From Bacilli bacterium (GTDB lineage: Bacteria > Bacillota_I > Bacilli_A > RF39 > UBA660): 54,499 nt of DNA. Position 1 is the first letter of the stretch. Each line of letters starts with the position of its first letter. Below the pieces are notes generated by a model. That model was not told the DNA's origin, ran no database searches, and saw only the letters and a list, made by a program, of their open reading frames with translations. Positions 40,299-53,241 of this stretch are shown here, piece after piece. The stretch spans positions 1 to 54,499 of the forward strand of contig JAFRHI010000008.1 of the NCBI GenBank assembly GCA_017433415.1. Direction: 5' to 3'. The position numbers and the translations under genes are program-made.

Positions 40299-41357
40299 AT
40301 GTATAGAAATACATTTGTGGAAGTTAATTTAAAAAACTTAAAATATAATATTGAATCATTAATTAATAAATATAATGGCTATGAATACTTTTTTGGAGTA
40401 GTAAAAGCTGATTGTTATGGGCATAATGATATTTCTACAGTCAAAGCGATAATTGAGGCTGGTTGTAATTATCTTGCGGTTGCAACACTGGATGAAGCAT
40501 TAGCTATAAGAAAAGAAATAAAAGATGTTCCTATATTATGTCTAAGTATTGTTGACATTAAATATCTTCCTTTATGCTTAAAAAATGAAATTACTATAAC
40601 AGTAAGTAACCTTGATTATATAAAAAATATTACTACTGAAAATCCTAATTTAAAAGTTCATATAAAAGTTAACACTGGTATGAATAGACTTGGCGTTAGT
40701 AATAAAAATGAATTCAACACCATATGTAAGTTAATCAAAGAAAAGCATTTTGTATTAGAAGGAATATATACACATATATATAATCCTATTAATAAAATTG
40801 ATACTTTTAATCAATTTGAAGAATTTGAAAGAATTACAGGTGATATTAATTTAAAGGAAATACCTATTGTTCATGTAGGTGCAAGTGAAACGACAGAGTT
40901 TTATTCAAAGAGAAGTTATGCGAATGGCTGTCGCTTAGGTATTTCTATGTATGGATTAATTGATTGTGATAATGTTAATTTTAAATCTACATTTAGTCTA
41001 TATAGTGAAATTGTTCAAATAAATGAAGTTGAGCATGGAGTTGTTGGATATAGTGGATCTTATAAAGTAAATGGAAAAGAAAAAATAGCAGTAATTCCAA
41101 TAGGATATGCTGATGGTATTATTAGAAAAAATACTGGTAGAAATATATATATAAATAATAAACCCTATGAAATAGTTGGTAACATCTGTATGGATATGCT
41201 ATTTGTTAAAGTTGATGATTCTGTTAAAGTTGGGGATAAAGTAACAATTATTAAAGATATTGATCATATTAAGGAGATTGCTAAACATTTAGATACTATA
41301 ACATATGAAGTAATCTGCTCTATTAGTAAAAGAGTTCCAAGAATATATATTAAATAA
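40299..41357 (+). CDS. alr: Alanine racemase
   Basis: The 352-residue fold-type III PLP enzyme has the Schiff-base lysine K36 in GVVKADCYGHN and the second catalytic Tyr in the VGYSGSYKV region. VGNICMDM and GYADGI follow as in Alr. It makes D-Ala for the ligase encoded 4 kb away on the other strand. The ribosome site AAAGGAG is ten bases upstream. This is the last gene of the core-chromosome block; the following DNA is accessory. Confidence 0.93.
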   Translation: MYRNTFVEVNLKNLKYNIESLINKYNGYEYFFGVVKADCYGHNDISTVKAIIEAGCNYLAVATLDEALAIRKEIKDVPILCLSIVDIKYLPLCLKNEITITVSNLDYIKNITTENPNLKVHIKVNTGMNRLGVSNKNEFNTICKLIKEKHFVLEGIYTHIYNPINKIDTFNQFEEFERITGDINLKEIPIVHVGASETTEFYSKRSYANGCRLGISMYGLIDCDNVNFKSTFSLYSEIVQINEVEHGVVGYSGSYKVNGKEKIAVIPIGYADGIIRKNTGRNIYINNKPYEIVGNICMDMLFVKVDDSVKVGDKVTIIKDIDHIKEIAKHLDTITYEVICSISKRVPRIYIK

Positions 41358-41404: not shown

Positions 41405-41415
41405 AAATGGAGCGA
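41405..41415. other. Candidate attR: copy of the tRNA-Gly 3' end
   Basis: AAATGGAGCGA is identical and in the same orientation as 53164-53174, which spans the 3' end of tRNA-Gly. A loose dyad (AACTTT/AAAGTT, 41417-41454) adjoins it inside the element. Confidence 0.6.
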
Positions 41416-41477
41416 TAACTTTACTTATATTCGAAAAATTATACTCCCAAAGTTGTTTGATTAAATCAACTAAATAA

Positions 41478-41506
41478 ATTATATAAGATTTATCATTAAA
41501 AATCAA
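41478..41506 (-). promoter_or_regulatory. Consensus promoter firing outward through the attR-like site
   Basis: TTGATT (41501-41506), 17-base spacer, TATAAT (41478-41483) on the minus strand. Transcription from about 41471 would end at the 41371-41396 terminator, giving an RNA of about 100 bases with no protein frame. Confidence 0.65.
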
Positions 41507-41571
41507 TGGTTCTATGGTAAATTCAATAAAAATATAGTATAATTTTATTAGAAATTTTCGGGAGGTTTATA

Positions 41572-42156
41572 ATGGACTTAAAGACTACAATATTTAGTAA
41601 AATATTAAATATGAATAAAAGAAAATTAGGAGTTAGTGTTATTATTGCATTTGTTTCAATATTAATATTATTTCCATTTATTGATACTAATTTTTTCTAT
41701 GCTAATAGAATAAAAAGTAGAATTGATATTTTACAGAAGATTACTGAATTAGATATGGACAAGATAAATCAAGATAAGAATTTAGCGAAAGAATATGAAA
41801 GAATTGTAAAAGAAATAAATGAATCCGATAGTAATTATATTAATAAAGTTTTAAATAATAATAAAAATGCCCATACCATTGGTAAGTTTATAAGTGGTGG
41901 AATTTTATGGTGGTTATTAGGAATTATAGTTCTATTCTTTTATAATGTATTTAATAAAGAAGATAATAAAAAAGGTAAAAATTGGGGAACAAGAATTGCA
42001 GGATTTATTTTATGTGCAATTATAGGTGGACTTATAGGCCTTATTTGCTCAATTATACCAACGATATTCAATATTTGGGTTAATTATATAATAATACCTA
42101 TTTTAGTTCTTGTACTAATGATTTTATTGCTATACAAATCTTCATCTAATAATTAG
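41572..42156 (+). CDS. Membrane protein, first gene of the cargo operon
   Basis: The 194-residue protein has hydrophobic segments at about 20-38, 107-123, 140-158 and 165-188. A charged, probably coiled loop of about 65 residues lies between the first two (RIKSRIDILQKITELDMDKI). No family is recognised. A GGGAGG site lies upstream, with a TATAAT about 28 bases before the ATG but only a poor -35. The next gene starts 11 bases after its stop, so they form one operon. Confidence 0.65.
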   Translation: MDLKTTIFSKILNMNKRKLGVSVIIAFVSILILFPFIDTNFFYANRIKSRIDILQKITELDMDKINQDKNLAKEYERIVKEINESDSNYINKVLNNNKNAHTIGKFISGGILWWLLGIIVLFFYNVFNKEDNKKGKNWGTRIAGFILCAIIGGLIGLICSIIPTIFNIWVNYIIIPILVLVLMILLLYKSSSNN

Positions 42157-42167
42157 GAGGCGTTGAT

Positions 42168-43079
42168 ATGAAAGTATTAAGTTTAACAGAACCTTATGCA
42201 ACTCTAATAAAAGAAAATAAGAAATTAGTTGAAACACGAAGTTGGAAAACTGATTATAGAGGCGAATTATATATTCATGCTAGTGCTACAAGAATTCCAA
42301 AAGAATGGAAAGAAAACAAAGAATTAATGGCATTAGTAGATGATAAATCATTAAACTTTGGAAATATTATTTGTAAATGCAAATTAGTTGACTGCATTTA
42401 TATGACAAAAGAGTATGTAGAAAATATGAAAATTAATAATTATCAAGAATATATTTGTGGTGTATATGAAGAAAGTAGATATGCTTGGGTTTTAGAAAAT
42501 GTAACACCATTAAAAGAACCAATAAAAGCTAAAGGACAACTTAATATTTGGAATTATTATGATGATTTAGAAATTATGGATTTAATGGAAGATATAGAGT
42601 ATGGTTGGTTAGATAAGTATAATAAGAAACATACAATTGTTGATGAAACATTTTCAAATGATTATATGTTACAATCGCCAAGTGAAATAATATCTAATAA
42701 AGTTGGTGTATGCTGGGATCAAGTGGAACTTGAAAGAAATTATTTTAAAGGAAATGATTGGAATATAAAAACATATTTTATAGTACATTACGATGGTGAT
42801 AGATGTCCAACACATACTTTTTTAACTTACAAAAAGAATAATAAATATTATTGGTTTGAACATTCATGGAAAAGATTTAAAGGAATACATGAATACAATA
42901 GTGAAAAAGATTTATTATTAGATGTTAGAGACAAATTTATTAATTATGAATTAAACAACCAATATGAAAATGAAAATCTAGTATTACACGAATATAAAAA
43001 GCCAAAATATCATATTTCAGTTCAAGATTTCTATAACCATTGTGATAATGGAAAATATATAGATTTTAATAAATTATAG
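42168..43079 (+). CDS. ASCH domain fused to a transglutaminase-like domain
   Basis: The 303-residue protein begins with an ASCH/PUA-like domain (about 1-130): LSLTEPYATLIKENKKLVETRSW, then YRGELYIHASA and later AWVLENVTPLKEPIKAKGQLNIW. ASCH domains are RNA- or nucleotide-binding folds. From about 140 the second half has a Cys-His arrangement: C182 in NKVGVCWDQVELER, H216 in CPTHTFLTYKK and EH at 231-232 in YWFEHSWK, as in papain/transglutaminase-like proteins. Cysteine protease, amidase or transferase chemistry is possible; I cannot choose. The ribosome site is AGGAGG. It is followed at 14 bases by the deformylase-like gene. Confidence 0.7.
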   Translation: MKVLSLTEPYATLIKENKKLVETRSWKTDYRGELYIHASATRIPKEWKENKELMALVDDKSLNFGNIICKCKLVDCIYMTKEYVENMKINNYQEYICGVYEESRYAWVLENVTPLKEPIKAKGQLNIWNYYDDLEIMDLMEDIEYGWLDKYNKKHTIVDETFSNDYMLQSPSEIISNKVGVCWDQVELERNYFKGNDWNIKTYFIVHYDGDRCPTHTFLTYKKNNKYYWFEHSWKRFKGIHEYNSEKDLLLDVRDKFINYELNNQYENENLVLHEYKKPKYHISVQDFYNHCDNGKYIDFNKL

Positions 43080-43093
43080 GAGAAAAAGATAAT

Positions 43094-43693
43094 ATGGAAT
43101 TAAATAGAATAACTATTGAGAATAATGAAGAGTTTTTAAGACAAATTTCAACCGATGTTAATTTTATTAATGATGATTATAGTAAATGGATAGAAGCATT
43201 AAAAGATTATTGTCAAAATAATGCTGTTTATGCTTTAGCTCCTGTTCAAATTGGTATTCCTAAAAGAATGATTTATTTTAGAAATACCACATCTGATATG
43301 ACTAAAAACAAGGATTCAAATTATGATGAAAGTACAGTTCTTATAAATCCTGTTATAATTGAAGCTAAAGGACATACTAGATTTATTGAAAGATGTGCAA
43401 GTTGTCTTGATTATGTTGCTACTGTTGATAGACCATATTCAGTTGAAGCAGAATACTACGATGTTAATGGCAATAAAGTACATGAGACTTTTGAAGGATT
43501 TAAGGCAACAGTATTTAGTCACGAGTATGATCATTTAAATGGTATCTTGCATATTGATTTATCAGATGATGTTAGAGAAATGACTTGGGAAGAAACAAAA
43601 ACATATAGAGAAGAACATCCTTATGAAGTGTTATCAAAAGATGATGAATTTGATTATGGTTCAAGAGAGATAAGAATTAAAAAGACAATTTAA
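43094..43693 (+). CDS. Divergent peptide deformylase-like metalloenzyme
   Basis: The 199-residue protein has the zinc/iron site HEYDH (143-147) intact. Motif 1 is ALAPVQIG (Gln52), a variant of the usual GxGLAAPQ. Motif 2 is ERCAS with Cys101 instead of EGCLS. Peptide deformylase removes the formyl group from N-terminal Met. As a mobile-element copy it may give resistance to deformylase inhibitors or act on special peptides; both are inference. It is the last gene of the cargo operon and is convergent with the relaxase gene. Confidence 0.78.
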   Translation: MELNRITIENNEEFLRQISTDVNFINDDYSKWIEALKDYCQNNAVYALAPVQIGIPKRMIYFRNTTSDMTKNKDSNYDESTVLINPVIIEAKGHTRFIERCASCLDYVATVDRPYSVEAEYYDVNGNKVHETFEGFKATVFSHEYDHLNGILHIDLSDDVREMTWEETKTYREEHPYEVLSKDDEFDYGSREIRIKKTI

Positions 43694-43721
43694 GTCACAT
43701 AGACCTAGAATTGTCTTTTTC
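43680..43721. terminator. Bidirectional terminator between deformylase-like and relaxase genes
   Basis: A 12-bp AAAAAGACAATT/AATTGTCTTTTT stem with an 18-base loop lies between convergent genes. Confidence 0.75.
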
Positions 43722-45002
43722 TTTTTGAATATCCTTATCAAAATTATTAAGGTTATTTTGTATGCCTTCGGCTCTTTTTGTTATTTCTTTACAATATTTA
43801 TCGTACTTATAAAGTTTTTTAATTTTAGGTTGTATATCATTTATTTCGGCAAGTATTTCATTTTGTTTATCTTCAGTTTTTGCTCTATGGTATCTTTTCC
43901 AAAGATTTTCTCTTTTACCTTTTAACTCACTTAATTCATCAGAGTTATTTTTAGCAAAGTTATCTAAATCATCTTTCGTTACAATATTATTCTCGTGCAT
44001 AAATCTAACTTGTTGTGAAGTTTGCTCTAATTTGTAAACCTCTTTTCTAATAGAGTATGGAAGATATTGTTTAGGATGGTTCTTTGGGAATACTCCTAGT
44101 AGATAACAATAGTATAAATATAATCCATATATTCCTTTATGAGGTTTATTAGTCCTAGAATATTCTTCAAAGATAGATTTTTGTGGCATAGGTCTAAATA
44201 CTATTTGTTTTGATAAATATAATCGTTGGTTTAGTCTTTCTTTTGAATATTCTTCACCAAATACATTTTCTATTCTAACTTTATCTTCACCATCTCTATA
44301 AATAGTTATTACACCATTACGAGAATAAACTTTATAACCTAGTGATTTCATTCTTTCAAATAATTGTTTTAAAGTAACTGAATAACTAATAACATTGTCT
44401 AAATCTTCTTTAAGAGTTTTGTAATATTCATCATTTGAAATACTTTTAGTATAAGTCTTTTTATAAAACTTATCTTCATCTAAAACAGATAGTCCATATT
44501 CAGAACATAGTGAATCAGAAATGTGTCTTATCTTTGATATATTGGTTAGATTGTTATTATATTTCTTACCACTTTTAAAAGAAACAGAGTTAATTATGAA
44601 ATGGTTGTGAATATGATTAGTATTTTGATGTGTTGCAACAACCACTTCATAATCTTTAAACATTTCTTCTGCAAACTTAACACCAATCTCATGAGCAATA
44701 TCTGGAGTAACTTCGCCTTCTTTAAATGACTGGTAACCATGATAAGCAAGAACTCCGTCTTTCTTTTTAAATCTTTCTTTAGTGAACTCCATATCATCAC
44801 AAGGATTATCTTCATCACAATTTAAGCAACTTACATAACAAACTTTTTCTTGTTTAAAATTATAATCTTTAATAGGTTCTTCTAAATAACTATATGACTC
44901 TCTATTACCATAATCTTTATTAAGAGTTTTTTCAGGGTTGATGATATAATTTATAGACTGCTTTAAATTATTCTTAATACTCCAAATTGATGTTGTCGCC
45001 AT
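43695..45002 (-). CDS. MOBP-type relaxase (mobilisation nuclease)
   Basis: The 435-residue protein has an N-terminal relaxase domain (about 1-180) with the HUH-type motif ATHQNTNHIHNHFIINS (His 125, 130, 132, 134). An early catalytic Tyr (YII) near 19 and a Cys-rich insertion C-x4-C (56-68) precede it. The rest is a helical C-terminal region (about 180-435), ending in coiled coil. Relaxases nick oriT and pilot single-stranded DNA during conjugation. No type IV secretion genes are present, so the element would be mobilised by another one's machinery. The start has AAAGGA upstream; the nearby 45003-45064 is a candidate oriT. Confidence 0.85.
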   Translation of the reverse strand: MATTSIWSIKNNLKQSINYIINPEKTLNKDYGNRESYSYLEEPIKDYNFKQEKVCYVSCLNCDEDNPCDDMEFTKERFKKKDGVLAYHGYQSFKEGEVTPDIAHEIGVKFAEEMFKDYEVVVATHQNTNHIHNHFIINSVSFKSGKKYNNNLTNISKIRHISDSLCSEYGLSVLDEDKFYKKTYTKSISNDEYYKTLKEDLDNVISYSVTLKQLFERMKSLGYKVYSRNGVITIYRDGEDKVRIENVFGEEYSKERLNQRLYLSKQIVFRPMPQKSIFEEYSRTNKPHKGIYGLYLYYCYLLGVFPKNHPKQYLPYSIRKEVYKLEQTSQQVRFMHENNIVTKDDLDNFAKNNSDELSELKGKRENLWKRYHRAKTEDKQNEILAEINDIQPKIKKLYKYDKYCKEITKRAEGIQNNLNNFDKDIQKEKDNSRSM

Positions 45003-45064
45003 ATAGGTTTATCCTTTCTTTTGGAGTGGTGGGAGTAATACCACCTTGCTTGCTTATGACAACG
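45003..45064. other. Candidate oriT region upstream of the relaxase
   Basis: A short non-coding gap with an inverted repeat GGTGG/CCACC around TGGGAGTAATA, followed by CTTGCTTGC. The site next to relaxases is often oriT; no nick site is identified. Confidence 0.35.
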
Positions 45065-45418
45065 TCACACATAAACTAACTCCTTTAAGATAATATCTTC
45101 AGCAGTATTTTTATAATTATTCATCATTTTTACCCATTCAATTTGATTATTTTCTTTGCTTTTTTCAGATAGTTTTTCATCATTCTTAATATAATTATCC
45201 ATTATAGTTTTTAATCTTTCTTCACATTCTTTACTGACTGAAAGAAGATGATTTGTTAGTTCATTCTTCATTAAAAGTGCCTGATATAATCCTCTTTTGT
45301 GCTCCTTAATATAGTTTAATCGCAAGTAACCATACTTATTTATTTCTCCATAATTTTGATTTTCTATTACCAAATTAGGTAATAAATAATCTCCTTTTTT
45401 AACATATTCAATATTCAT
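45065..45418 (-). CDS. tnpV: TnpV-family transposon protein
   Basis: The 117-residue protein has YLRLNYIKEHKRGLYQALLMKNELTNHL, the TnpV core, then an acidic helix and NNQIEWVKMMNNYKNTAEDIILKEL. TnpV was named in Tn4451-type mobilizable transposons and recurs beside serine recombinases; its role is unknown. It lies 62 bases upstream of the relaxase gene and on the same strand. The ribosome site is GAAAGGA. Confidence 0.85.
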   Translation of the reverse strand: MNIEYVKKGDYLLPNLVIENQNYGEINKYGYLRLNYIKEHKRGLYQALLMKNELTNHLLSVSKECEERLKTIMDNYIKNDEKLSEKSKENNQIEWVKMMNNYKNTAEDIILKELVYV

Positions 45419-45436
45419 AATTTAATCAAATCCTTT

Positions 45437-45688
45437 CTAATTTTCTAATAATTTATTTGTTTTGTAGCTTATAATTCCATATTTATCTTTGACATTATCT
45501 ACTGTAATAGGGAACTTTTCTTTAGGTGAAATTGCTACAAATCTTATAATTTTTTCATTATCTTTTGGTTGATATTCTAAAATAACTTCATTAGTTTTTT
45601 CATCAATTGTTTCATACATTTCATAAAAAGATGTTTCAAAGTGTTCATTCATTTTAGATAAATACTTATCTAATTGTTCTTCATTCAT
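45437..45688 (-). CDS. Small element protein of unknown function
   Basis: The ATG at 45688 with AGGTGG just upstream gives about 83 residues: a helical N-terminus (MNEEQLDKYLSKMNEHFETSFYEMY), then beta-rich (VILEYQPKDNEKIIRFVAI). No family is recognised. The same frame stays open upstream to the recombinase stop at 45788-45790, so this stretch could also be the 3' part of a longer recombinase frame. TnpV follows 19 bases later. Confidence 0.55.
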   Translation of the reverse strand: MNEEQLDKYLSKMNEHFETSFYEMYETIDEKTNEVILEYQPKDNEKIIRFVAISPKEKFPITVDNVKDKYGIISYKTNKLLEN

Positions 45689-45787
45689 TCTGCCACCTTT
45701 AATAGTTTTTTCTACATTATCAACCATTACAGGTACTGCTACATCAAAGATACCTGCATCATAAAACTTTACTAATTGTTTTATAAA

Positions 45788-47341
<1,554 letters not shown>

Positions 47342-47397
47342 TTATTTATACGACAAAAACAACCAATATTGTGGGAGTATATAAACTCACCAATTCA

Positions 47398-47670
47398 TTA
47401 ATGCCTTGCTATGTACTCTGATAATTCAGACAATGGGATTTTCTTCTTAAGATTCCCTATATAAAAATGTTTCTGTTCATTGAAGAATAAGTATAACTTA
47501 TCTCCAATAATAACCTTATGTGGTTCTACATACGCTAGATTAGTATGTTCCACAATCCTTAAGTATCCTTCAATTATTTGATAGGACTTCTTATTGAATT
47601 TGCAAGACCAATTAATTTTGGCTTTGAGTTCATCACTCATATTGATTTTCTTTTTTACGATATTAATCAT
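47398..47670 (-). CDS. Small protein paired with recombinase A
   Basis: The 90-residue protein shares with the 94-residue protein at 52795-53076 the order [LM]S-x-[DE]LK-x-KI[ND]W, then NLAYV[ED]PHKV, LFFN and LSEL. So they are paralogues, both just upstream of a large serine recombinase. It has no signal or membrane segment and no known motif. A regulator or directionality factor is inferred only from position. The ribosome site is AAAGGGTGTGATG. Two terminators bracket it. Confidence 0.7.
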   Translation of the reverse strand: MINIVKKKINMSDELKAKINWSCKFNKKSYQIIEGYLRIVEHTNLAYVEPHKVIIGDKLYLFFNEQKHFYIGNLKKKIPLSELSEYIARH

Positions 47671-47702
47671 ACCACATCACACCCTTTCTTCGCAATAGCA
47701 AC

Positions 47703-47725
47703 AAAAAAATCAACTTGCGTTGATT
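47703..47725 (-). terminator. Terminator in the leader of the 90-residue gene
   Basis: An AATCAAC/GTTGATT stem with loop TTGC and a T run on the minus strand, upstream of the small gene. It corresponds to 53101-53127 in element B. Confidence 0.7.
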
Positions 47726-47737
47726 TAATCATTAACA

Positions 47738-47750
47738 TCGCTTGGTGCGA
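47738..47750 (-). ncRNA. Conserved leader hairpin, copy A
   Basis: TCGC-5-GCGA, flanked by AAAATCG on the minus strand. Copy B at 53141-53153 is TCGG-5-CCGA. The fourth pair differs in both partners, so the stem is kept (compensatory change). Confidence 0.55.
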
Positions 47751-48025
47751 CGATTTTATCTTTTGGAGCAATTGTGTATCTCGTTTGAGAAACAATTACC
47801 GACAAATGTAATGAGATAAAACTCAATTACATACTAAATATATCACGTTTTAGGGAAAGAGTAAATAACTTGAAAATGATATTTTGATAAAATTGATAAA
47901 ATAGTGAGTGGGACATTGATTTTTAAAGTGTTAATTTGATAAGGATTTAATCCCACATCTAATCCCACTAAGAAGTCATTATAAAAAAAGGAAATTAACA
48001 ATACATAATCCCACAATAGTGGGAC

Positions 48026-48051
48026 AATTTTGCATGTGCAAAATAAGTTTG
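48026..48051 (+). repeat. Outer inverted repeat, left arm (26 bp)
   Basis: 25 of 26 bases match the complement of 48747-48772. The arm itself holds the near-palindrome TTTTGCA-TG-TGCAAAA. Confidence 0.9.
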
Positions 48052-48101
48052 ATATCACATAGAAGTATTATGCAATAAGGCCTTGTTTAATGTGTTGATA
48101 T

Positions 48102-48120
48102 CAATTACTTATGCTCTTGC
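48102..48120 (+). repeat. Inner inverted repeat, left arm (19 bp)
   Basis: 17 of 19 bases, including a perfect 13 (CTTATGCTCTTGC), match the complement of 48679-48697. Confidence 0.85.
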
Positions 48121-48197
48121 AAAATTATTCAATAAATTACATAATTTGTGGGATTATATGTCCCATTTGTGGGATTCTACAAAAACTATAAAATTAG

Positions 48198-48226
48198 TTG
48201 CAATAAATAAGTTTTTAGTATATAAT
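48198..48226 (+). promoter_or_regulatory. Promoter of the 104-residue gene
   Basis: TTGCAA, 17-base spacer, TATAAT, about 30 bases before the ATG. Confidence 0.75.
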
Positions 48227-48256
48227 AATCAATTGTCTTTGAAGGAGGTATAAACA

Positions 48257-48571
48257 ATGGAAAAAATAATTCGTTGTACAAGAATTGGTGTTGATTGTGT
48301 TGCTAATGATCCAGTAGATGTTCGTTGTGGTGGACCAGAGTATTTAGGTTTTGATTTTAATGTTCAAAAAGAACAAGCTGAAGAAATGAAAAAGTTTATA
48401 AGAGAAGCTCTTAATAGTTTTAACGTTCCAGTAGCCGCAATATATAGTTATGGTGAAATTGATTTAAATGAAGAAAAAGTATGGACAAAAGAAAGAATTG
48501 TAGCTGCTATAAGTAAAGATGCCAATTATTTAATAAGTGAAGCAAGTAGAAATTATTCGAGAAGAAGATAA
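48257..48571 (+). CDS. 104-residue protein of unknown function within nested inverted repeats
   Basis: It starts IIRCTRIGVDCVANDPVDVRCGGPEYLGFDFNV, a beta-rich opening with three Cys. A helix (QAEEMKKFIREALNSF) and a strand-helix end with a basic tail (NYSRRR) follow. There is no signal or membrane segment, and I do not recognise the family. It has the best ribosome site in the region (GAAGGAGG), its own consensus promoter and its own terminator. So it is a real, independently expressed gene, on the opposite strand to its neighbours. Confidence 0.75.
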   Translation: MEKIIRCTRIGVDCVANDPVDVRCGGPEYLGFDFNVQKEQAEEMKKFIREALNSFNVPVAAIYSYGEIDLNEEKVWTKERIVAAISKDANYLISEASRNYSRRR

Positions 48572-48599
48572 CAATAAACAGGATTTTCCTGTTTTTTTA
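48571..48599 (+). terminator. Terminator of the 104-residue gene
   Basis: An AACAGG/CCTGTT stem with a T run. Confidence 0.8.
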
Positions 48600-48609
48600 A
48601 TGTTGCCAT

Positions 48610-48651
48610 TTTGGTTGAAAAATGACCATGATTTGGTTGTATTTCGACCAT
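48610..48651. repeat. Two direct repeats TTTGGTTG-N6-GACCAT, 22-bp period
   Basis: Units at 48610-48629 and 48632-48651. ATGGTC appears again inverted at 48784-48789. The spacing of about two helical turns suggests protein-binding sites. Confidence 0.6.
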
Positions 48652-48678
48652 AATTTTAATTTTTTTGTATAACAAAAA

Positions 48679-48697
48679 GCAAGAGCATAAGAGATTG
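48679..48697 (-). repeat. Inner inverted repeat, right arm
   Basis: Complement of 48102-48120 (perfect 13-base core GCAAGAGCATAAG). Confidence 0.85.
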
Positions 48698-48749
48698 TCC
48701 CCTAAAACTATTAAAACCTAGATAAACTCTAGGTATTTAATAGGGACAA
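48695..48749. other. Long interrupted stem-loop
   Basis: TTGTCCC (48695-48701) pairs with GGGACAA (48743-48749), ATTAAA with TTTAAT and ACCTAGA with TCTAGGT, around a five-base loop. One side bulges by eight bases. Either strand could fold. Confidence 0.7.
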
Positions 48750-48772
48750 ACTTATTTTGCACTTGCAAAATT
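48747..48772 (-). repeat. Outer inverted repeat, right arm (26 bp)
   Basis: Complement of 48026-48051 with one mismatch. It contains TTTTGCA-CT-TGCAAAA. Confidence 0.9.
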
Positions 48773-48803
48773 TAACCATAAAGATGGTCGTAATAATAGA
48801 AGA

Positions 48804-48834
48804 AACCCTTATATTATAAGGTTTTTTTATGGTA
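48804..48834 (+). terminator. Plus-strand terminator in non-coding DNA
   Basis: A CCTTATA-T-TATAAGG stem with seven T. No plus-strand gene ends here, so it may close an RNA crossing 48600-48800. Confidence 0.6.
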
Positions 48835-48949
48835 GAAATTATGGATGATTTTGAAATCATTCTTAGTTTTCATTATATTCTTTTTATTAATGATAAATTA
48901 AATAAATAATTTATAATAATGAATACAAATCCACTTATAAAATAGTAAA

Positions 48950-49963
48950 TTATTTATAGATAGAAACAACTCCCTCTAATTTAATAGATGATACAAATAA
49001 CGTTTCTTTATCATTTTTTTGCATTAATTCAATGTTTAATTCTGCTCCCATATTTTCCAAAAGTTCATATGCAAAAGCCAATCCTATTCCTGAACCTAAA
49101 TTTGTAGCATTATTTCCGCGGACACCTTTTTGAATCAGTTTATTTCCATCAGTTTCATTAATTTTTTCACTAATATTACTAATCTTGATAATTGAATGCT
49201 CAGTGCTTTCATCGAAAGTTATTTCTATTGTACTATCTGGCTTTGCATATTTTATTGCATTTTCCATCAATATAAATAATGATAAATATAGAGATTTAGT
49301 AATATTAAATGAATTTTGCTGTTTACTACTTATGTTTACTTTTATTCCTTTTTGCCTAGCTTTATATCTCAAAATATAATTTAATTTTGCAACAATTGGA
49401 TGAAGTTTTTGTTCCTTTTCGATTATGTCAGTTAAATCAACTTTACCATATAATATATCTAGTCTAAAATTAATTAATTCATACAATGATATAAGTGACA
49501 TTTCGTTAGAAGTTAATTCATTATCGCCTTTTTCTTCTTTAAATTCATCAATCATTGAATTAAAGTAAGAAGCCATATTTCTCAAATCATGTACCGTTTC
49601 TTTATATCTTTCTAGAGTCATATCTCTTTCAATGGATTTTTTTACCAAAATTAATGCTTGCTCGGTAGTAAACTTCACGCCGTGTTTTAACTCATATTCA
49701 AAATTATTTCTCGTTTTTCCATTAATATTTTCACTGATGATTATGGAAGTTAAGATATTACCTCTATGTACAATAGTTGATAGACCATATGGACATGAAT
49801 ATGTTCCGTCTTTTCCTGTATCGATATTTTCATAATATTTGGAACATTTTTTATTAGGATTACCTAAACATTTTTCGCAAAATAAATACTTTGGGTATAC
49901 ATAACCATCTAATAGTTTTTTATATTTTTTATCATATATTGGAAATATGTTATTTTGTAACAC
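48950..49963 (-). CDS. Soluble histidine kinase with Cys-rich N-terminal domain
   Basis: The 337-residue protein has no membrane segment. The N-terminal domain (about 20-100) holds C29-x2-C32-x7-C40-x16-C57 followed by PYGLSTIVHRGN, a pattern recalling PocR-type sensory domains. The dimerisation helix has His125 in ETVHDLRNMAS. The ATPase has the N-box LMENAIKYA (N235), then NLGSGIGLAFAYELL as G-box. It would phosphorylate the receiver protein encoded just upstream. The start is GTG, inside the last codons of the receiver gene (14-base overlap), so expression is coupled. The signal is unknown; metal or Fe-S binding by the cysteines is inference. Confidence 0.85.
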   Translation of the reverse strand: MLQNNIFPIYDKKYKKLLDGYVYPKYLFCEKCLGNPNKKCSKYYENIDTGKDGTYSCPYGLSTIVHRGNILTSIIISENINGKTRNNFEYELKHGVKFTTEQALILVKKSIERDMTLERYKETVHDLRNMASYFNSMIDEFKEEKGDNELTSNEMSLISLYELINFRLDILYGKVDLTDIIEKEQKLHPIVAKLNYILRYKARQKGIKVNISSKQQNSFNITKSLYLSLFILMENAIKYAKPDSTIEITFDESTEHSIIKISNISEKINETDGNKLIQKGVRGNNATNLGSGIGLAFAYELLENMGAELNIELMQKNDKETLFVSSIKLEGVVSIYK

Positions 49964-50648
49964 ACATTATCACCACATCTTTCATTACATCAAAAACATA
50001 AGGAAGTATTTTTTTCATTATTTCGCTTTTTTCTTTTAAACTTTTTTGGCAATATTTTTTTATATCAGAAGTATAATCTTTTCCTTCAAGAAATGAACGA
50101 ACAAAGAAATCTTCGAATACTGCAATATTTTCTGTTGGTATTTTATTAGATTCTAATATTTTTTTAATGCTGTCCCACTTGTATTTAGGATTACTTATAG
50201 TAGAAATATATTGATCCAATTTTTCTGATAATTGATTACTATTTAAATTCTTAATGATAGTTGCATCAACAGAACTATAATATGGATAAAAATCAAGAGA
50301 CTGATCTAAAGCACTAAATATTATTACAAACTTATCAGGATACATTTCCTTAATTTTTTTTGCTAGTGCTGCACCTTGAAAATATGGATCTATTTCCTTT
50401 GCTACTCCATTAATGTCACAAAAAATAATATCGTAGGCACTATATTCTTCCATAGTTGTATAATTAAATTTTACATCAATATCCTTAAAACCTAATTTGT
50501 TTAGTCCTTCTTTTTGAGCAAAACCTTCATCATCAATTATTAAAATTTTATATTTTTTTCTATCTGATTCAATTGTTGGTTCTAATTTTATATCAATAAT
50601 ATCATTTATCGTTCTTAATTTAGATTTTTTATTTATTAGAAAATTCAT
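49950..50648 (-). CDS. Receiver-domain protein without DNA-binding output
   Basis: The 232-residue protein has a receiver domain (about 33-145) with acidic pair D39/D40 in ILIIDDEG, phospho-acceptor D78 in IIFCDING, Ser112 in IIFSALD and Lys133 in IIKNL. All needed residues are present, so it should be phosphorylated by the kinase encoded downstream. The C-terminal 85 residues are helical and match no HTH, GGDEF, HD or methylesterase output I know. The N-terminal 30 residues (NKKSKLRTINDIIDIKLEP) may be another short region. The ribosome site is AGGAGG. A new output or a protein-binding role is inferred. Confidence 0.82.
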   Translation of the reverse strand: MNFLINKKSKLRTINDIIDIKLEPTIESDRKKYKILIIDDEGFAQKEGLNKLGFKDIDVKFNYTTMEEYSAYDIIFCDINGVAKEIDPYFQGAALAKKIKEMYPDKFVIIFSALDQSLDFYPYYSSVDATIIKNLNSNQLSEKLDQYISTISNPKYKWDSIKKILESNKIPTENIAVFEDFFVRSFLEGKDYTSDIKKYCQKSLKEKSEIMKKILPYVFDVMKDVVIMCVTK

Positions 50649-50756
50649 ATGTACCTCCTGATAAAAATTCCAATACCATTATACCATACAAATATAAATG
50701 TTTATCTCAATTTTATACATTTAGCTATTAATGATAAAAAACAGCTAATTTTATTG

Positions 50757-52653
<1,897 letters not shown>

Positions 52654-52794
52654 ATTAAATTCAATATTATAAATTTCGGGTAAATTGTGTTTTATTTTCA
52701 TAGATGTACCTCCATTTCTAGAGTTACCTCTTTCATTGGTTATTTATAATATCACTTTTTAGAATTTTGTCAATTCCCTATTGAGGGAATAGTA
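52654..52794. other. Non-coding leader between small gene B and recombinase B
   Basis: Apart from the terminator at its left edge I see no gene here. It contains GAGGTACATCTATG and GGAGGT-like purine runs on the minus strand, possibly a leader peptide, but no convincing frame. Confidence 0.3.
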
Positions 52795-53076
52795 TTAAGA
52801 ACATTTAGCTAGTTTAAAGAATTTTTCTAGTTCAGATAAATTATGTTTATCATTTAGAGTATTAACATAGAAAGTATCAACACCATTGAAGAACAAGAAT
52901 GTATAATTATTAATTTTAACTTTATGTGGATCTACATAAGCTAGATTACTAGGCTCTAATCTAATTAAATGACCTTTCTCAAGAATTATTGAAGTAGAAG
53001 TATAATTCTTAGCCCAATCAATCTTTTTCTTTAAGTCAGGGCTTAAATCAAGTTTTTCTTTAATAATATTTAACAT
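52795..53076 (-). CDS. Small protein paired with recombinase B
   Basis: About 93 residues: LSPDLKKKIDWAKNYTS, a middle with LEPSNLAYVDPHKVKI, TFLFFNGVDTFYV and NLSELEKFFKL. It is a paralogue of the 90-residue protein next to recombinase A, with NLAYV[ED]PHKV the best-kept core. I chose the ATG at 53076, aligned with the paralogue, with AAAGGTTGTGATG upstream; an in-frame start eight codons earlier lies before the ribosome site. A recombination directionality factor or regulator is possible but unproven. Confidence 0.7.
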   Translation of the reverse strand: MLNIIKEKLDLSPDLKKKIDWAKNYTSTSIILEKGHLIRLEPSNLAYVDPHKVKINNYTFLFFNGVDTFYVNTLNDKHNLSELEKFFKLAKCS

Positions 53077-53100
53077 ATCATCACAACCTTTCTTAGACAC

Positions 53101-53127
53101 AAAAAAACTTAATTATTTCTAATTAAG
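53101..53127 (-). terminator. Terminator after tRNA-Gly, before small gene B
   Basis: A CTTAATT/AATTAAG stem with loop ATTTCT and seven T on the minus strand. It would serve as the terminator of the interrupted tRNA operon and as an attenuator for the element genes. Confidence 0.7.
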
Positions 53128-53140
53128 CTTTATCTCAACA

Positions 53141-53153
53141 TCGGTTGTTCCGA
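53141..53153 (-). ncRNA. Conserved leader hairpin, copy B
   Basis: TCGG-5-CCGA, matching copy A (TCGC-5-GCGA) with a compensatory pair. It lies 11 bases inside the tRNA-Gly att-like site. Confidence 0.55.
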
Positions 53154-53163
53154 CGATTTTTAC

Positions 53164-53174
53164 AAATGGAGCGA
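53164..53174. other. Candidate attL at the tRNA-Gly 3' end
   Basis: AAATGGAGCGA, spanning the CCA end and discriminator of tRNA-Gly, is repeated at 41405-41415. Confidence 0.6.
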
Positions 53175-53241
53175 ACGAGGGGAATCGAACCCCCATCACA
53201 GCCTTGGCAAGGCCGTATTCTAACCATTGAACCACGTTCGC
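53167..53241 (-). tRNA. tRNA-Gly(GCC), CCA encoded; probable integration target
   Basis: Acceptor GCGAACG/CGTTCGC, anticodon loop TTGCCAA (GCC), T-loop TTCGATT and an encoded CCA. Intact although its 3' end is the probable insertion site. Confidence 0.95.

What the first reader, a model, noticed from the sequence alone, without database searches (positions are those of the whole stretch)
41572..43693. Tight cargo operon: membrane protein, ASCH-transglutaminase-like fusion, divergent deformylase
Three plus-strand genes with gaps of 11 and 14 bases on a mobile element combine an RNA/nucleotide-binding domain fused to a Cys-His hydrolase-like domain with an enzyme that deformylates nascent peptides. 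I do not know such a set. It could protect translation or N-terminal processing against an inhibitor, modify a peptide, or form an anti-phage or toxin module.
Basis: partly seen in the sequence, partly recalled or inferred. Interest (0 to 1): 0.58.

Follow-up and report, generated by a model that had tools for sequence, protein, structure and literature searches.

The report
Swappable mobile-element cargo with ASCH-protease fusion
Three genes packed together on a small mobile DNA element in a gut bacterium are most likely separately acquired cargo rather than one machine, but the middle one is a little-known, widely shared fusion of a nucleic-acid-binding type domain with a protease-like domain that may turn out to be a defence gene.

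Summary
In detail: three plus-strand ORFs (194, 303, 199 aa), gaps 11 and 14 bases: membrane protein, ASCH fused to a Cys-His hydrolase domain, divergent deformylase. They are the cargo of a Tn4451-like mobilizable element (41408-47769) inserted at the 3' end of tRNA-Gly. The set is not a conserved module. Among 80 loci encoding the fusion or its second half, none has such a deformylase within three genes; one has the membrane protein. Sister elements keep backbone and left end but carry other cargo (retron; FokI-like restriction-modification). The fusion is a nomadic gene of uncultured gut Bacilli: one ORF carries both domains in 75 of 80 loci, with varied partners, Fic commonest. Its first half models like the human TRIP4 ASCH domain, its second like CPR-C4 protease and vasohibins, with invariant Cys182/His216/Glu231. 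The deformylase belongs to an accessory subfamily (57 of 386 family genomes); mobile accessory deformylases, some lowering actinonin sensitivity, are published. The absence of another deformylase in this genome can be an assembly gap. Best reading: independently swapped cargo behind a shared leader. The bold reading, ASCH sensor plus protease effector as a one-gene defence, is open. A weak deformylase/ASCH neighbourhood recurs (p 0.07).

The parts
41408..47769 (.). Tn4451-like integrative mobilizable element 1, from core TGGAGC at 41408 to core TGGAGC at 47764
   Evidence: Left end conserved in 7 other loci and right end abutting tRNA-Gly in L257/L258
41401..41559 (+). Element left end and leader upstream of whichever gene is first in the cargo; possible cargo promoter (TATAAT near its end)
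   Evidence: 90.7% over 161 bp in L087 and 84.6% over 149 bp in L257, whose first cargo genes differ; first ~80 bp alignable in 8 of 8 printed, TATAAT near the end in 5 of 8. Promoter role inferred; the consensus scan is not above chance
41572..42156 (+). 194-aa membrane protein, near-orphan
   Evidence: 86% identical copy directly upstream of the fusion in L104; weak partial matches in 2 other relatives
42168..43079 (+). ASCH (residues 1-132) fused to transglutaminase-like Cys-His-Glu domain (residues 133-303; C182, H216, E231)
   Evidence: Pfam; AlphaFold2 pLDDT 95.0, pTM 0.87; TRIP4 ASCH Z 15.6, CPR-C4 Z 11.7, VASH1 Z 10.9; triad conservation
43094..43693 (+). Accessory peptide-deformylase-family protein; Q52, E99, C101, H143, E144, H147 kept; motif II ERCAS instead of EGCLS
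   Evidence: Pfam; alignments A2, A4; numbering against E. coli
43695..45002 (-). Relaxase (MobA/VirD2-like)
   Evidence: PF03432 127.6 bits
45065..45418 (-). TnpV
   Evidence: PF14198 105.5 bits
45788..47326 (-). Large serine recombinase
   Evidence: PF00239 and PF07508
47764..53172 (.). Second, related element in tandem, with its own serine recombinase (50757-52580)
   Evidence: cores at 47764 and 53167; ORFs
53167..53241 (-). tRNA-Gly(gcc), integration site; its 3' end is the core
   Evidence: ARAGORN

Best explanation
The three genes are independently exchangeable cargo of a Tn4451-like integrative mobilizable element sitting at the 3' end of tRNA-Gly. Shown: the element backbone and its left end recur in relatives with other cargo; the fusion recurs in many neighbourhoods; deformylase and membrane protein are not its constant partners. 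Inferred: genes are added and lost behind a constant element-end leader that supplies transcription. Each gene then acts on its own. The deformylase is an accessory enzyme of the kind that can keep N-terminal deformylation going under natural deformylase inhibitors (inferred, about 0.5). The fusion is a Cys-His-Glu peptidase or amidase of the transglutaminase-like fold whose ASCH half binds nucleic acid or a nucleotide and controls or targets it (fold modelled, binding and activity inferred, substrate unknown). My single most likely role for it is host defence (about 0.3), next small-molecule or peptide detoxification (about 0.25).
For: 0 of 80 fusion loci with an accessory deformylase within three ORFs, 400 neighbour ORFs examined. 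Membrane protein beside the fusion in 1 of 80. The 73 close co-directional neighbours of the fusion are mixed: 14 match PDC-S04/Fic, 3 SLFN_AlbA_2, 3 short-chain dehydrogenase, most others 1-2. Four elements of the same backbone carry the fusion inside with different companions: window, L087, L104, L108. In 147 relatives, six elements have a relaxase at least 70% identical (own included); only the own one was seen to carry the fusion, one carries a retron RT plus AAA ATPase, one a FokI-like enzyme, two methyltransferases and an AAA_13 protein. Leader conserved where first genes differ. Deformylases of this subfamily in 57 of 386 family genomes, neighbours diverse. Mobile accessory deformylases and actinonin tolerance are published (PMC12690207; abstract, Results part 1, section 13 and found passages read).
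Against: The membrane protein and the fusion travel together in two elements whose relaxases are 73% identical (window, L104), so that pair may be a unit. Deformylase and ASCH or transglutaminase-like genes lie within three ORFs in 6 of 62 deformylase places (window included; two of the six are one genus), 6 of 344 near ORFs against 1 of 324 ORFs further off, p = 0.072, and one deformylase is fused to an ASCH/PUA-like stretch (L070; the relation rests on one phmmer match at E 0.00066). Tight spacing suggests co-expression. Many contigs are short MAG pieces, so partners can be cut off.
Confidence: 0.72

Rival explanations
1. A three-gene functional module: membrane protein, ASCH-hydrolase and deformylase act together on translation, N-terminal processing or a peptide.
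For: Gaps of 11 and 14 bases, one strand; the hydrolase domain and the deformylase both may act on amide bonds of peptides (inference); weak deformylase/ASCH neighbourhood.
Against: 0 of 80 fusion loci with the deformylase within three ORFs, 1 of 80 with the membrane protein.
Confidence: 0.07
2. The fusion is a one-gene anti-phage effector: the ASCH domain senses invader or modified nucleic acid and switches on the protease-like domain, which damages the host or the phage; the other two genes are bystanders.
For: Same cargo slot holds a retron RT with ATPase and a FokI-like restriction-modification set in sister elements; commonest partner is a Fic protein matching PADLOC candidate PDC-S04 in 14 of 73 neighbours; other partners include SLFN_AlbA_2. 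Literature passages: an ASCH-fold protein BapA is a 5hmC-DNA glycosylase defending against T-even phages (PMC13160076); ASCH fused to a REase in mobile counter-invader neighbourhoods (PMC10853773). Triad C182/H216/E231 kept in every fusion ORF that has those letters: 77 of 77, 76 of 76, 74 of 74.
Against: No PADLOC model matches the fusion. Neighbours also include housekeeping-like genes. The same hydrolase domain is fused to GNAT, phosphotransferase and methyltransferase domains, which is not a sensor pattern. The Fic cases come mostly from one element type.
Confidence: 0.3
3. The hydrolase domain destroys or tailors an antibiotic or metabolite; the fusion is a resistance-type gene, like the catP cargo of Tn4451.
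For: The domain is fused to GNAT (L270, L271, L278), APH-type phosphotransferase (L275, L277) and methyltransferase (L274) domains, kinds common among drug-modifying enzymes (general knowledge); the fold also resembles arylamine N-acetyltransferases more weakly; deformylase next door.
Against: ASCH domains studied so far act on or bind nucleic acids or nucleosides (papers); the Thr of the YqfB Lys-Thr-Arg set is a Glu here, so the one known ASCH deacylase chemistry is not expected.
Confidence: 0.25
4. Accessory deformylases and ASCH-type proteins form a loose functional pair of which the window is one version.
For: ASCH or transglutaminase-like genes within three ORFs of 6 of 62 accessory deformylase places (window included), 0 of 30 housekeeping-type deformylase loci; L070 fusion.
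Against: p = 0.072, window counted, two cases from one genus; both gene kinds live in variable regions; 0 of 80 in the reverse direction.
Confidence: 0.12

Closest known systems
Tn4451/TnpX family of integrative mobilizable elements (and Tn6104-6106 of C. difficile; PMC3158075, passages read)
   Same: Large serine recombinase, TnpV, mobilisation protein, variable accessory genes
   Different: Ends at a 6-bp core TGGAGC at the 3' end of tRNA-Gly, in tandem with a second element; cargo differs
Accessory peptide deformylases on plasmids and integrons (PMC12690207)
   Same: PF01327, mobile, subfamily present beside a housekeeping copy in relatives; position 87 changed, position 125 Phe as in Def2 of Vibrio cholerae
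   Different: Position 97 is Val (V/M/F/L in 10 of 10 of the subfamily aligned) rather than Tyr; motif II ERCAS; carried by an integrative mobilizable element; activity untested
TRIP4/ASC-1 ASCH domain
   Same: Fold over residues 1-132 (Z 15.6, 124 aligned, 2.9 A)
   Different: About 23% identity; here joined to a hydrolase domain; nucleic acid binding untested
CPR-C4 protease and vasohibins (PMC9108980, abstract and passages read)
   Same: Fold over about residues 119/130-303 (Z 11.7 and 10.9), catalytic-type Cys and His
   Different: 9-15% identity; an invariant Glu231 where they use a backbone carbonyl as third member; no SVBP-like partner known
DUF553 PF04473 (transglutaminase-like)
   Same: Match over residues 150-232, 20.4 bits
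   Different: Just under the curated cut-off of 20.5; different architecture

Membership tests
Tn4451/TnpX-type integrative mobilizable element | large serine recombinase | tested here: met
   PF00239 116.6 and PF07508 76.1 bits
Tn4451/TnpX-type integrative mobilizable element | TnpV | tested here: met
   PF14198 105.5 bits
Tn4451/TnpX-type integrative mobilizable element | mobilisation relaxase | tested here: met
   PF03432 127.6 bits
Tn4451/TnpX-type integrative mobilizable element | 2-bp target repeat | tested here: inconclusive
   6-bp shared core TGGAGC at both ends; the crossover dinucleotide cannot be seen
Tn4451/TnpX-type integrative mobilizable element | excision as a circle, mobilisation | not testable with these tools
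   needs PCR or mating
Peptide deformylase (PF01327) | profile match | tested here: met
   117.9 bits, cut-off 22.8
Peptide deformylase (PF01327) | motif I with Gln | tested here: inconclusive
   ALAPVQ; Gln52 kept, one Ala is Pro
Peptide deformylase (PF01327) | motif II EGCLS | tested here: not met
   ERCAS: Glu, Cys and Ser kept, Gly and Leu replaced; the published survey says exact motifs are not needed for activity
Peptide deformylase (PF01327) | motif III HEXXH | tested here: met
   HEYDH 143-147
Actinonin-tolerant Def2-type deformylase | Tyr at E. coli position 97 | tested here: not met
   Val108 by ungapped alignment of motif II; not Arg either
Actinonin-tolerant Def2-type deformylase | Phe at position 125 | tested here: met
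   Phe136; 10 of 10 in A4
Actinonin-tolerant Def2-type deformylase | raised actinonin MIC | not testable with these tools
   bench test
ASCH domain (PF04266) | profile over cut-off and fold | tested here: met
   25.0 against 21.2 bits; TRIP4 Z 15.6
YqfB-type ASCH amidohydrolase | Lys21-x-x-Thr24-x-Arg26 | tested here: not met
   K19-x-x-E22-x-R24 by eye; E22 invariant in 44 sequences; YqfB residues from PMC6972931
Vasohibin/CPR-C4 proteases | fold | tested here: met
   Z 11.7 and 10.9
Vasohibin/CPR-C4 proteases | third catalytic member a backbone carbonyl (Leu) | tested here: inconclusive
   invariant Glu231 is a candidate third member; model coordinates not inspected
Vasohibin/CPR-C4 proteases | protease activity | not testable with these tools
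   bench test
Known anti-phage systems (PADLOC) | match of any of the three proteins | tested here: not met
   only ZorA at E 0.021 for the membrane protein; none for the other two at E up to 1

The most novel reading that the evidence does not exclude
The ASCH-hydrolase fusion founds a new family of one-gene defence proteins spread by mobile elements through uncultured gut Bacilli: the ASCH half reads foreign or modified nucleic acid and releases a vasohibin/CPR-C4-fold peptidase with a Cys-His-Glu triad.
Probability: 0.2. Interest if true: 0.75.

Novelty: new variant of a known kind. Interest (0 to 1): 0.4.

Why it matters
It turns an apparent operon into a testable picture of gene-by-gene cargo exchange on a mobilizable element at tRNA-Gly, whose slot elsewhere holds known defence systems. 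It brings out a conserved, mobile ASCH-peptidase-fold fusion that I did not find described in the papers searched, and a deformylase subfamily with changes at inhibitor-contact positions.

Tried and rejected
Rejected: that the mobile deformylase is the only one in this organism. The own genome shows no other, but 143 of 147 relatives (the own genome is one of the 143) have at least one PF01327 gene. In same-genus loci the housekeeping copy lies between an SMC-like gene and an FtsW-like gene, with other genes sometimes between (names read by eye from sequence). In the own genome the match to the SMC-like gene ends at C21:24533 and that contig ends at 24704, while only a 34% identical FtsW-like match exists. 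An assembly gap explains it.

Rejected: a known defence system by profile. Rejected: YqfB-like deacylase chemistry of the ASCH half (motif not met). Rejected: a plasmid or phage origin of the whole fusion. Plasmids (35 of 72,556 records) and phages (3 of 50,697) gave matches to the ASCH half only; of 80 viral contigs kept out of 104, 70 had an ASCH ORF, none the hydrolase domain or such a deformylase.

Led nowhere: a viral-contig scan with the deformylase (nothing); a model of the membrane protein (pLDDT 54.1, pTM 0.26; not searched); promoter scan not above chance (27 found, mean 22.1 sd 5.9). Deformylases on plasmids (25 records) are distant, under 60% identity. A paper search for ASCH domain, transglutaminase and fusion found 0 papers; ASCH with transglutaminase-like found 4, of which I read passages in one, without such a fusion.

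Full report
What is there. The three ORFs are real and at the stated places: 41572-42156, 42168-43079, 43094-43693, gaps 11 and 14 bases. Pfam names ASCH (25.0 bits, cut-off 21.2) and, just under its cut-off, DUF553/transglutaminase-like (20.4 against 20.5) in the middle protein, and Pep_deformylase (117.9) in the last.

The element. Downstream lie a relaxase, TnpV and a large serine recombinase, the gene set of the Tn4451 family (passages of PMC3158075). Comparison with seven loci from relatives places the ends: a 6-bp core TGGAGC at 41408, 47764 and 53167, the last being the 3' end of tRNA-Gly. In L257 and L258 one element abuts tRNA-Gly directly; here two related elements stand in tandem. 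The left 160 bases are 90.7% (over 161 bp, L087) and 84.6% (149 bp, L257) identical although the first cargo genes there are an SLFN_AlbA_2 and an HD-domain protein. A TATAAT is visible near the end of the leader in 5 of 8 elements printed; that it is a promoter is inference, and the consensus scan was not above chance.

Not a module. A scan with five fusion proteins gave 201 loci, of which the best 80 were kept; nearly all named records are uncultured Bacilli, Tenericutes or Firmicutes MAGs. One ORF carries both domains in 75 of 80; of the other five, two are broken fusions (L159, L162) and three have the second domain only. No accessory deformylase lies within three ORFs of the fusion in any of the 80 (400 neighbour ORFs; 72 loci show an upstream and 75 a downstream ORF); one lies seven ORFs away on the other strand in L088. 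The membrane protein lies beside the fusion once, in L104 (86% identity), where an HD_3 protein takes the deformylase's place before the relaxase. Close same-strand neighbours (73 proteins within 100 bases, at least 70 aa, taken from the 75 loci with both domains in one ORF) match Fic/PDC-S04 in 14, SLFN_AlbA_2 in 3, short-chain dehydrogenase in 3, and otherwise families with one or two members.

Sister elements. Of 147 relatives, 12 have a relaxase match at E up to 1e-40, six at 70% identity or more, own included (a seventh match, in G029, is an 88% identical fragment of 85 residues and was not counted). Their cargo differs: a retron RT (RT_Ec107-like, E 1.8e-123) with an AAA ATPase in G083; a FokI-like enzyme, two methyltransferases and an AAA_13 protein in G082; an HD protein in G031; a 500-aa protein without Pfam match in G006; ferredoxin-like and cysteine-desulfurase-like genes, by eye, in G079. 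The contigs of G083 and G079 are short, so their cargo may be cut.

The fusion. AlphaFold2 with 44 sequences gives pLDDT 95.0, pTM 0.87. Residues 1-132 match the TRIP4 ASCH domain (Z 15.6, 124 aligned, 2.9 A). Residues about 119-303 match CPR-C4 (Z 11.7, 163 aligned, 3.7 A) and VASH1 (Z 10.9), above LapG (8.3), a streptococcal TglA and NTAQ1 (7.6). In 77 ORFs with both domains Cys182 is kept in 77, His216 in 76 of 76 with a letter, Glu231 in 74 of 74; in 31 ORFs with the second domain only, Cys in 29, His and Glu in 31. Outside the fusion the second domain is joined to GNAT, APH phosphotransferase, methyltransferase or DUF3781 domains. So the chemistry is probably that of a cysteine peptidase or amidase; the substrate is unknown.

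The deformylase. It belongs to a subfamily about 44-48% identical to it, found at E up to 1e-40 in 57 of 386 family genomes, besides the housekeeping type. Gln, Glu, Cys and HEXXH of the active site are kept, motif II is ERCAS. By ungapped alignment with E. coli, Arg97 is Val108 (V, M, F or L in 10 of 10), Leu125 is Phe136 (10 of 10), Glu87 is Ile98. Lamberioux et al. (PMC12690207) report that nearly half of bacterial genomes have more than one deformylase, often on plasmids and integrons, and that R97Y, with L125F adding, lowers actinonin sensitivity in Vibrio cholerae. The window protein shares Phe at 125 and loss of Arg97, but not Tyr97. The housekeeping type of these bacteria is spaced differently at this place, so the comparison is with E. 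coli only.

A possible looser link. Among 62 accessory deformylase places, ASCH or the second domain lies within three ORFs in six: window, L332, L357, L364, L368, L371 (the last two from one genus). Near, 6 of 344 ORFs; four to eight ORFs away, 1 of 324; one-sided p = 0.072 with the window counted. Around 30 housekeeping-type deformylases there were none among 111 neighbours, in shorter loci. In L070 a deformylase carries an N-terminal stretch that weakly matches one ASCH ORF (E 0.00066) but no Pfam model. Suggestive, not significant.

Verdict. Ordinary in its mobile frame and in its accessory deformylase; unusual in the fusion, whose spread, conserved triad and company make it worth testing as a defence or detoxification gene. 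Survey limits: MAG contigs, mechanical ORF calling, best 80 of 201 loci.

Noticed in passing
47764-53172: A second related element in tandem, with its own serine recombinase and cargo that looks by eye like a response regulator (49950-50648) and a histidine-kinase-like protein (48950-49963).
   Followed up: partly
40299-41357: Alanine racemase just left of the element; a match at E up to 1e-60 occurs in only 6 of 31 genomes searched, own included, so it may itself be accessory.
   Followed up: partly
L259:2888-4934: Retron RT (RT_Ec107-like) with AAA ATPase as cargo of a sister element.
   Followed up: partly
L261:9301-14990: FokI-like enzyme, two methyltransferases and an AAA_13 protein (PDC-S06 match) as cargo of a sister element.
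   Followed up: partly
L099:10001-13577 and similar loci: Fusion followed directly by a Fic protein (PDC-S04) and a distant serine recombinase; a second element type, often beside an ffh-like gene (named by eye).
   Followed up: partly
L275, L277, L274, L270, L271, L278: The fusion's second domain joined to APH phosphotransferase, methyltransferase and GNAT domains.
   Followed up: partly
L070:3404-4420: Deformylase with an N-terminal stretch that weakly resembles ASCH/PUA domains.
   Followed up: partly
L257:12895-12945: A further TGGAGC lies just beyond the element end, hinting at longer arrays at this site.
   Followed up: no
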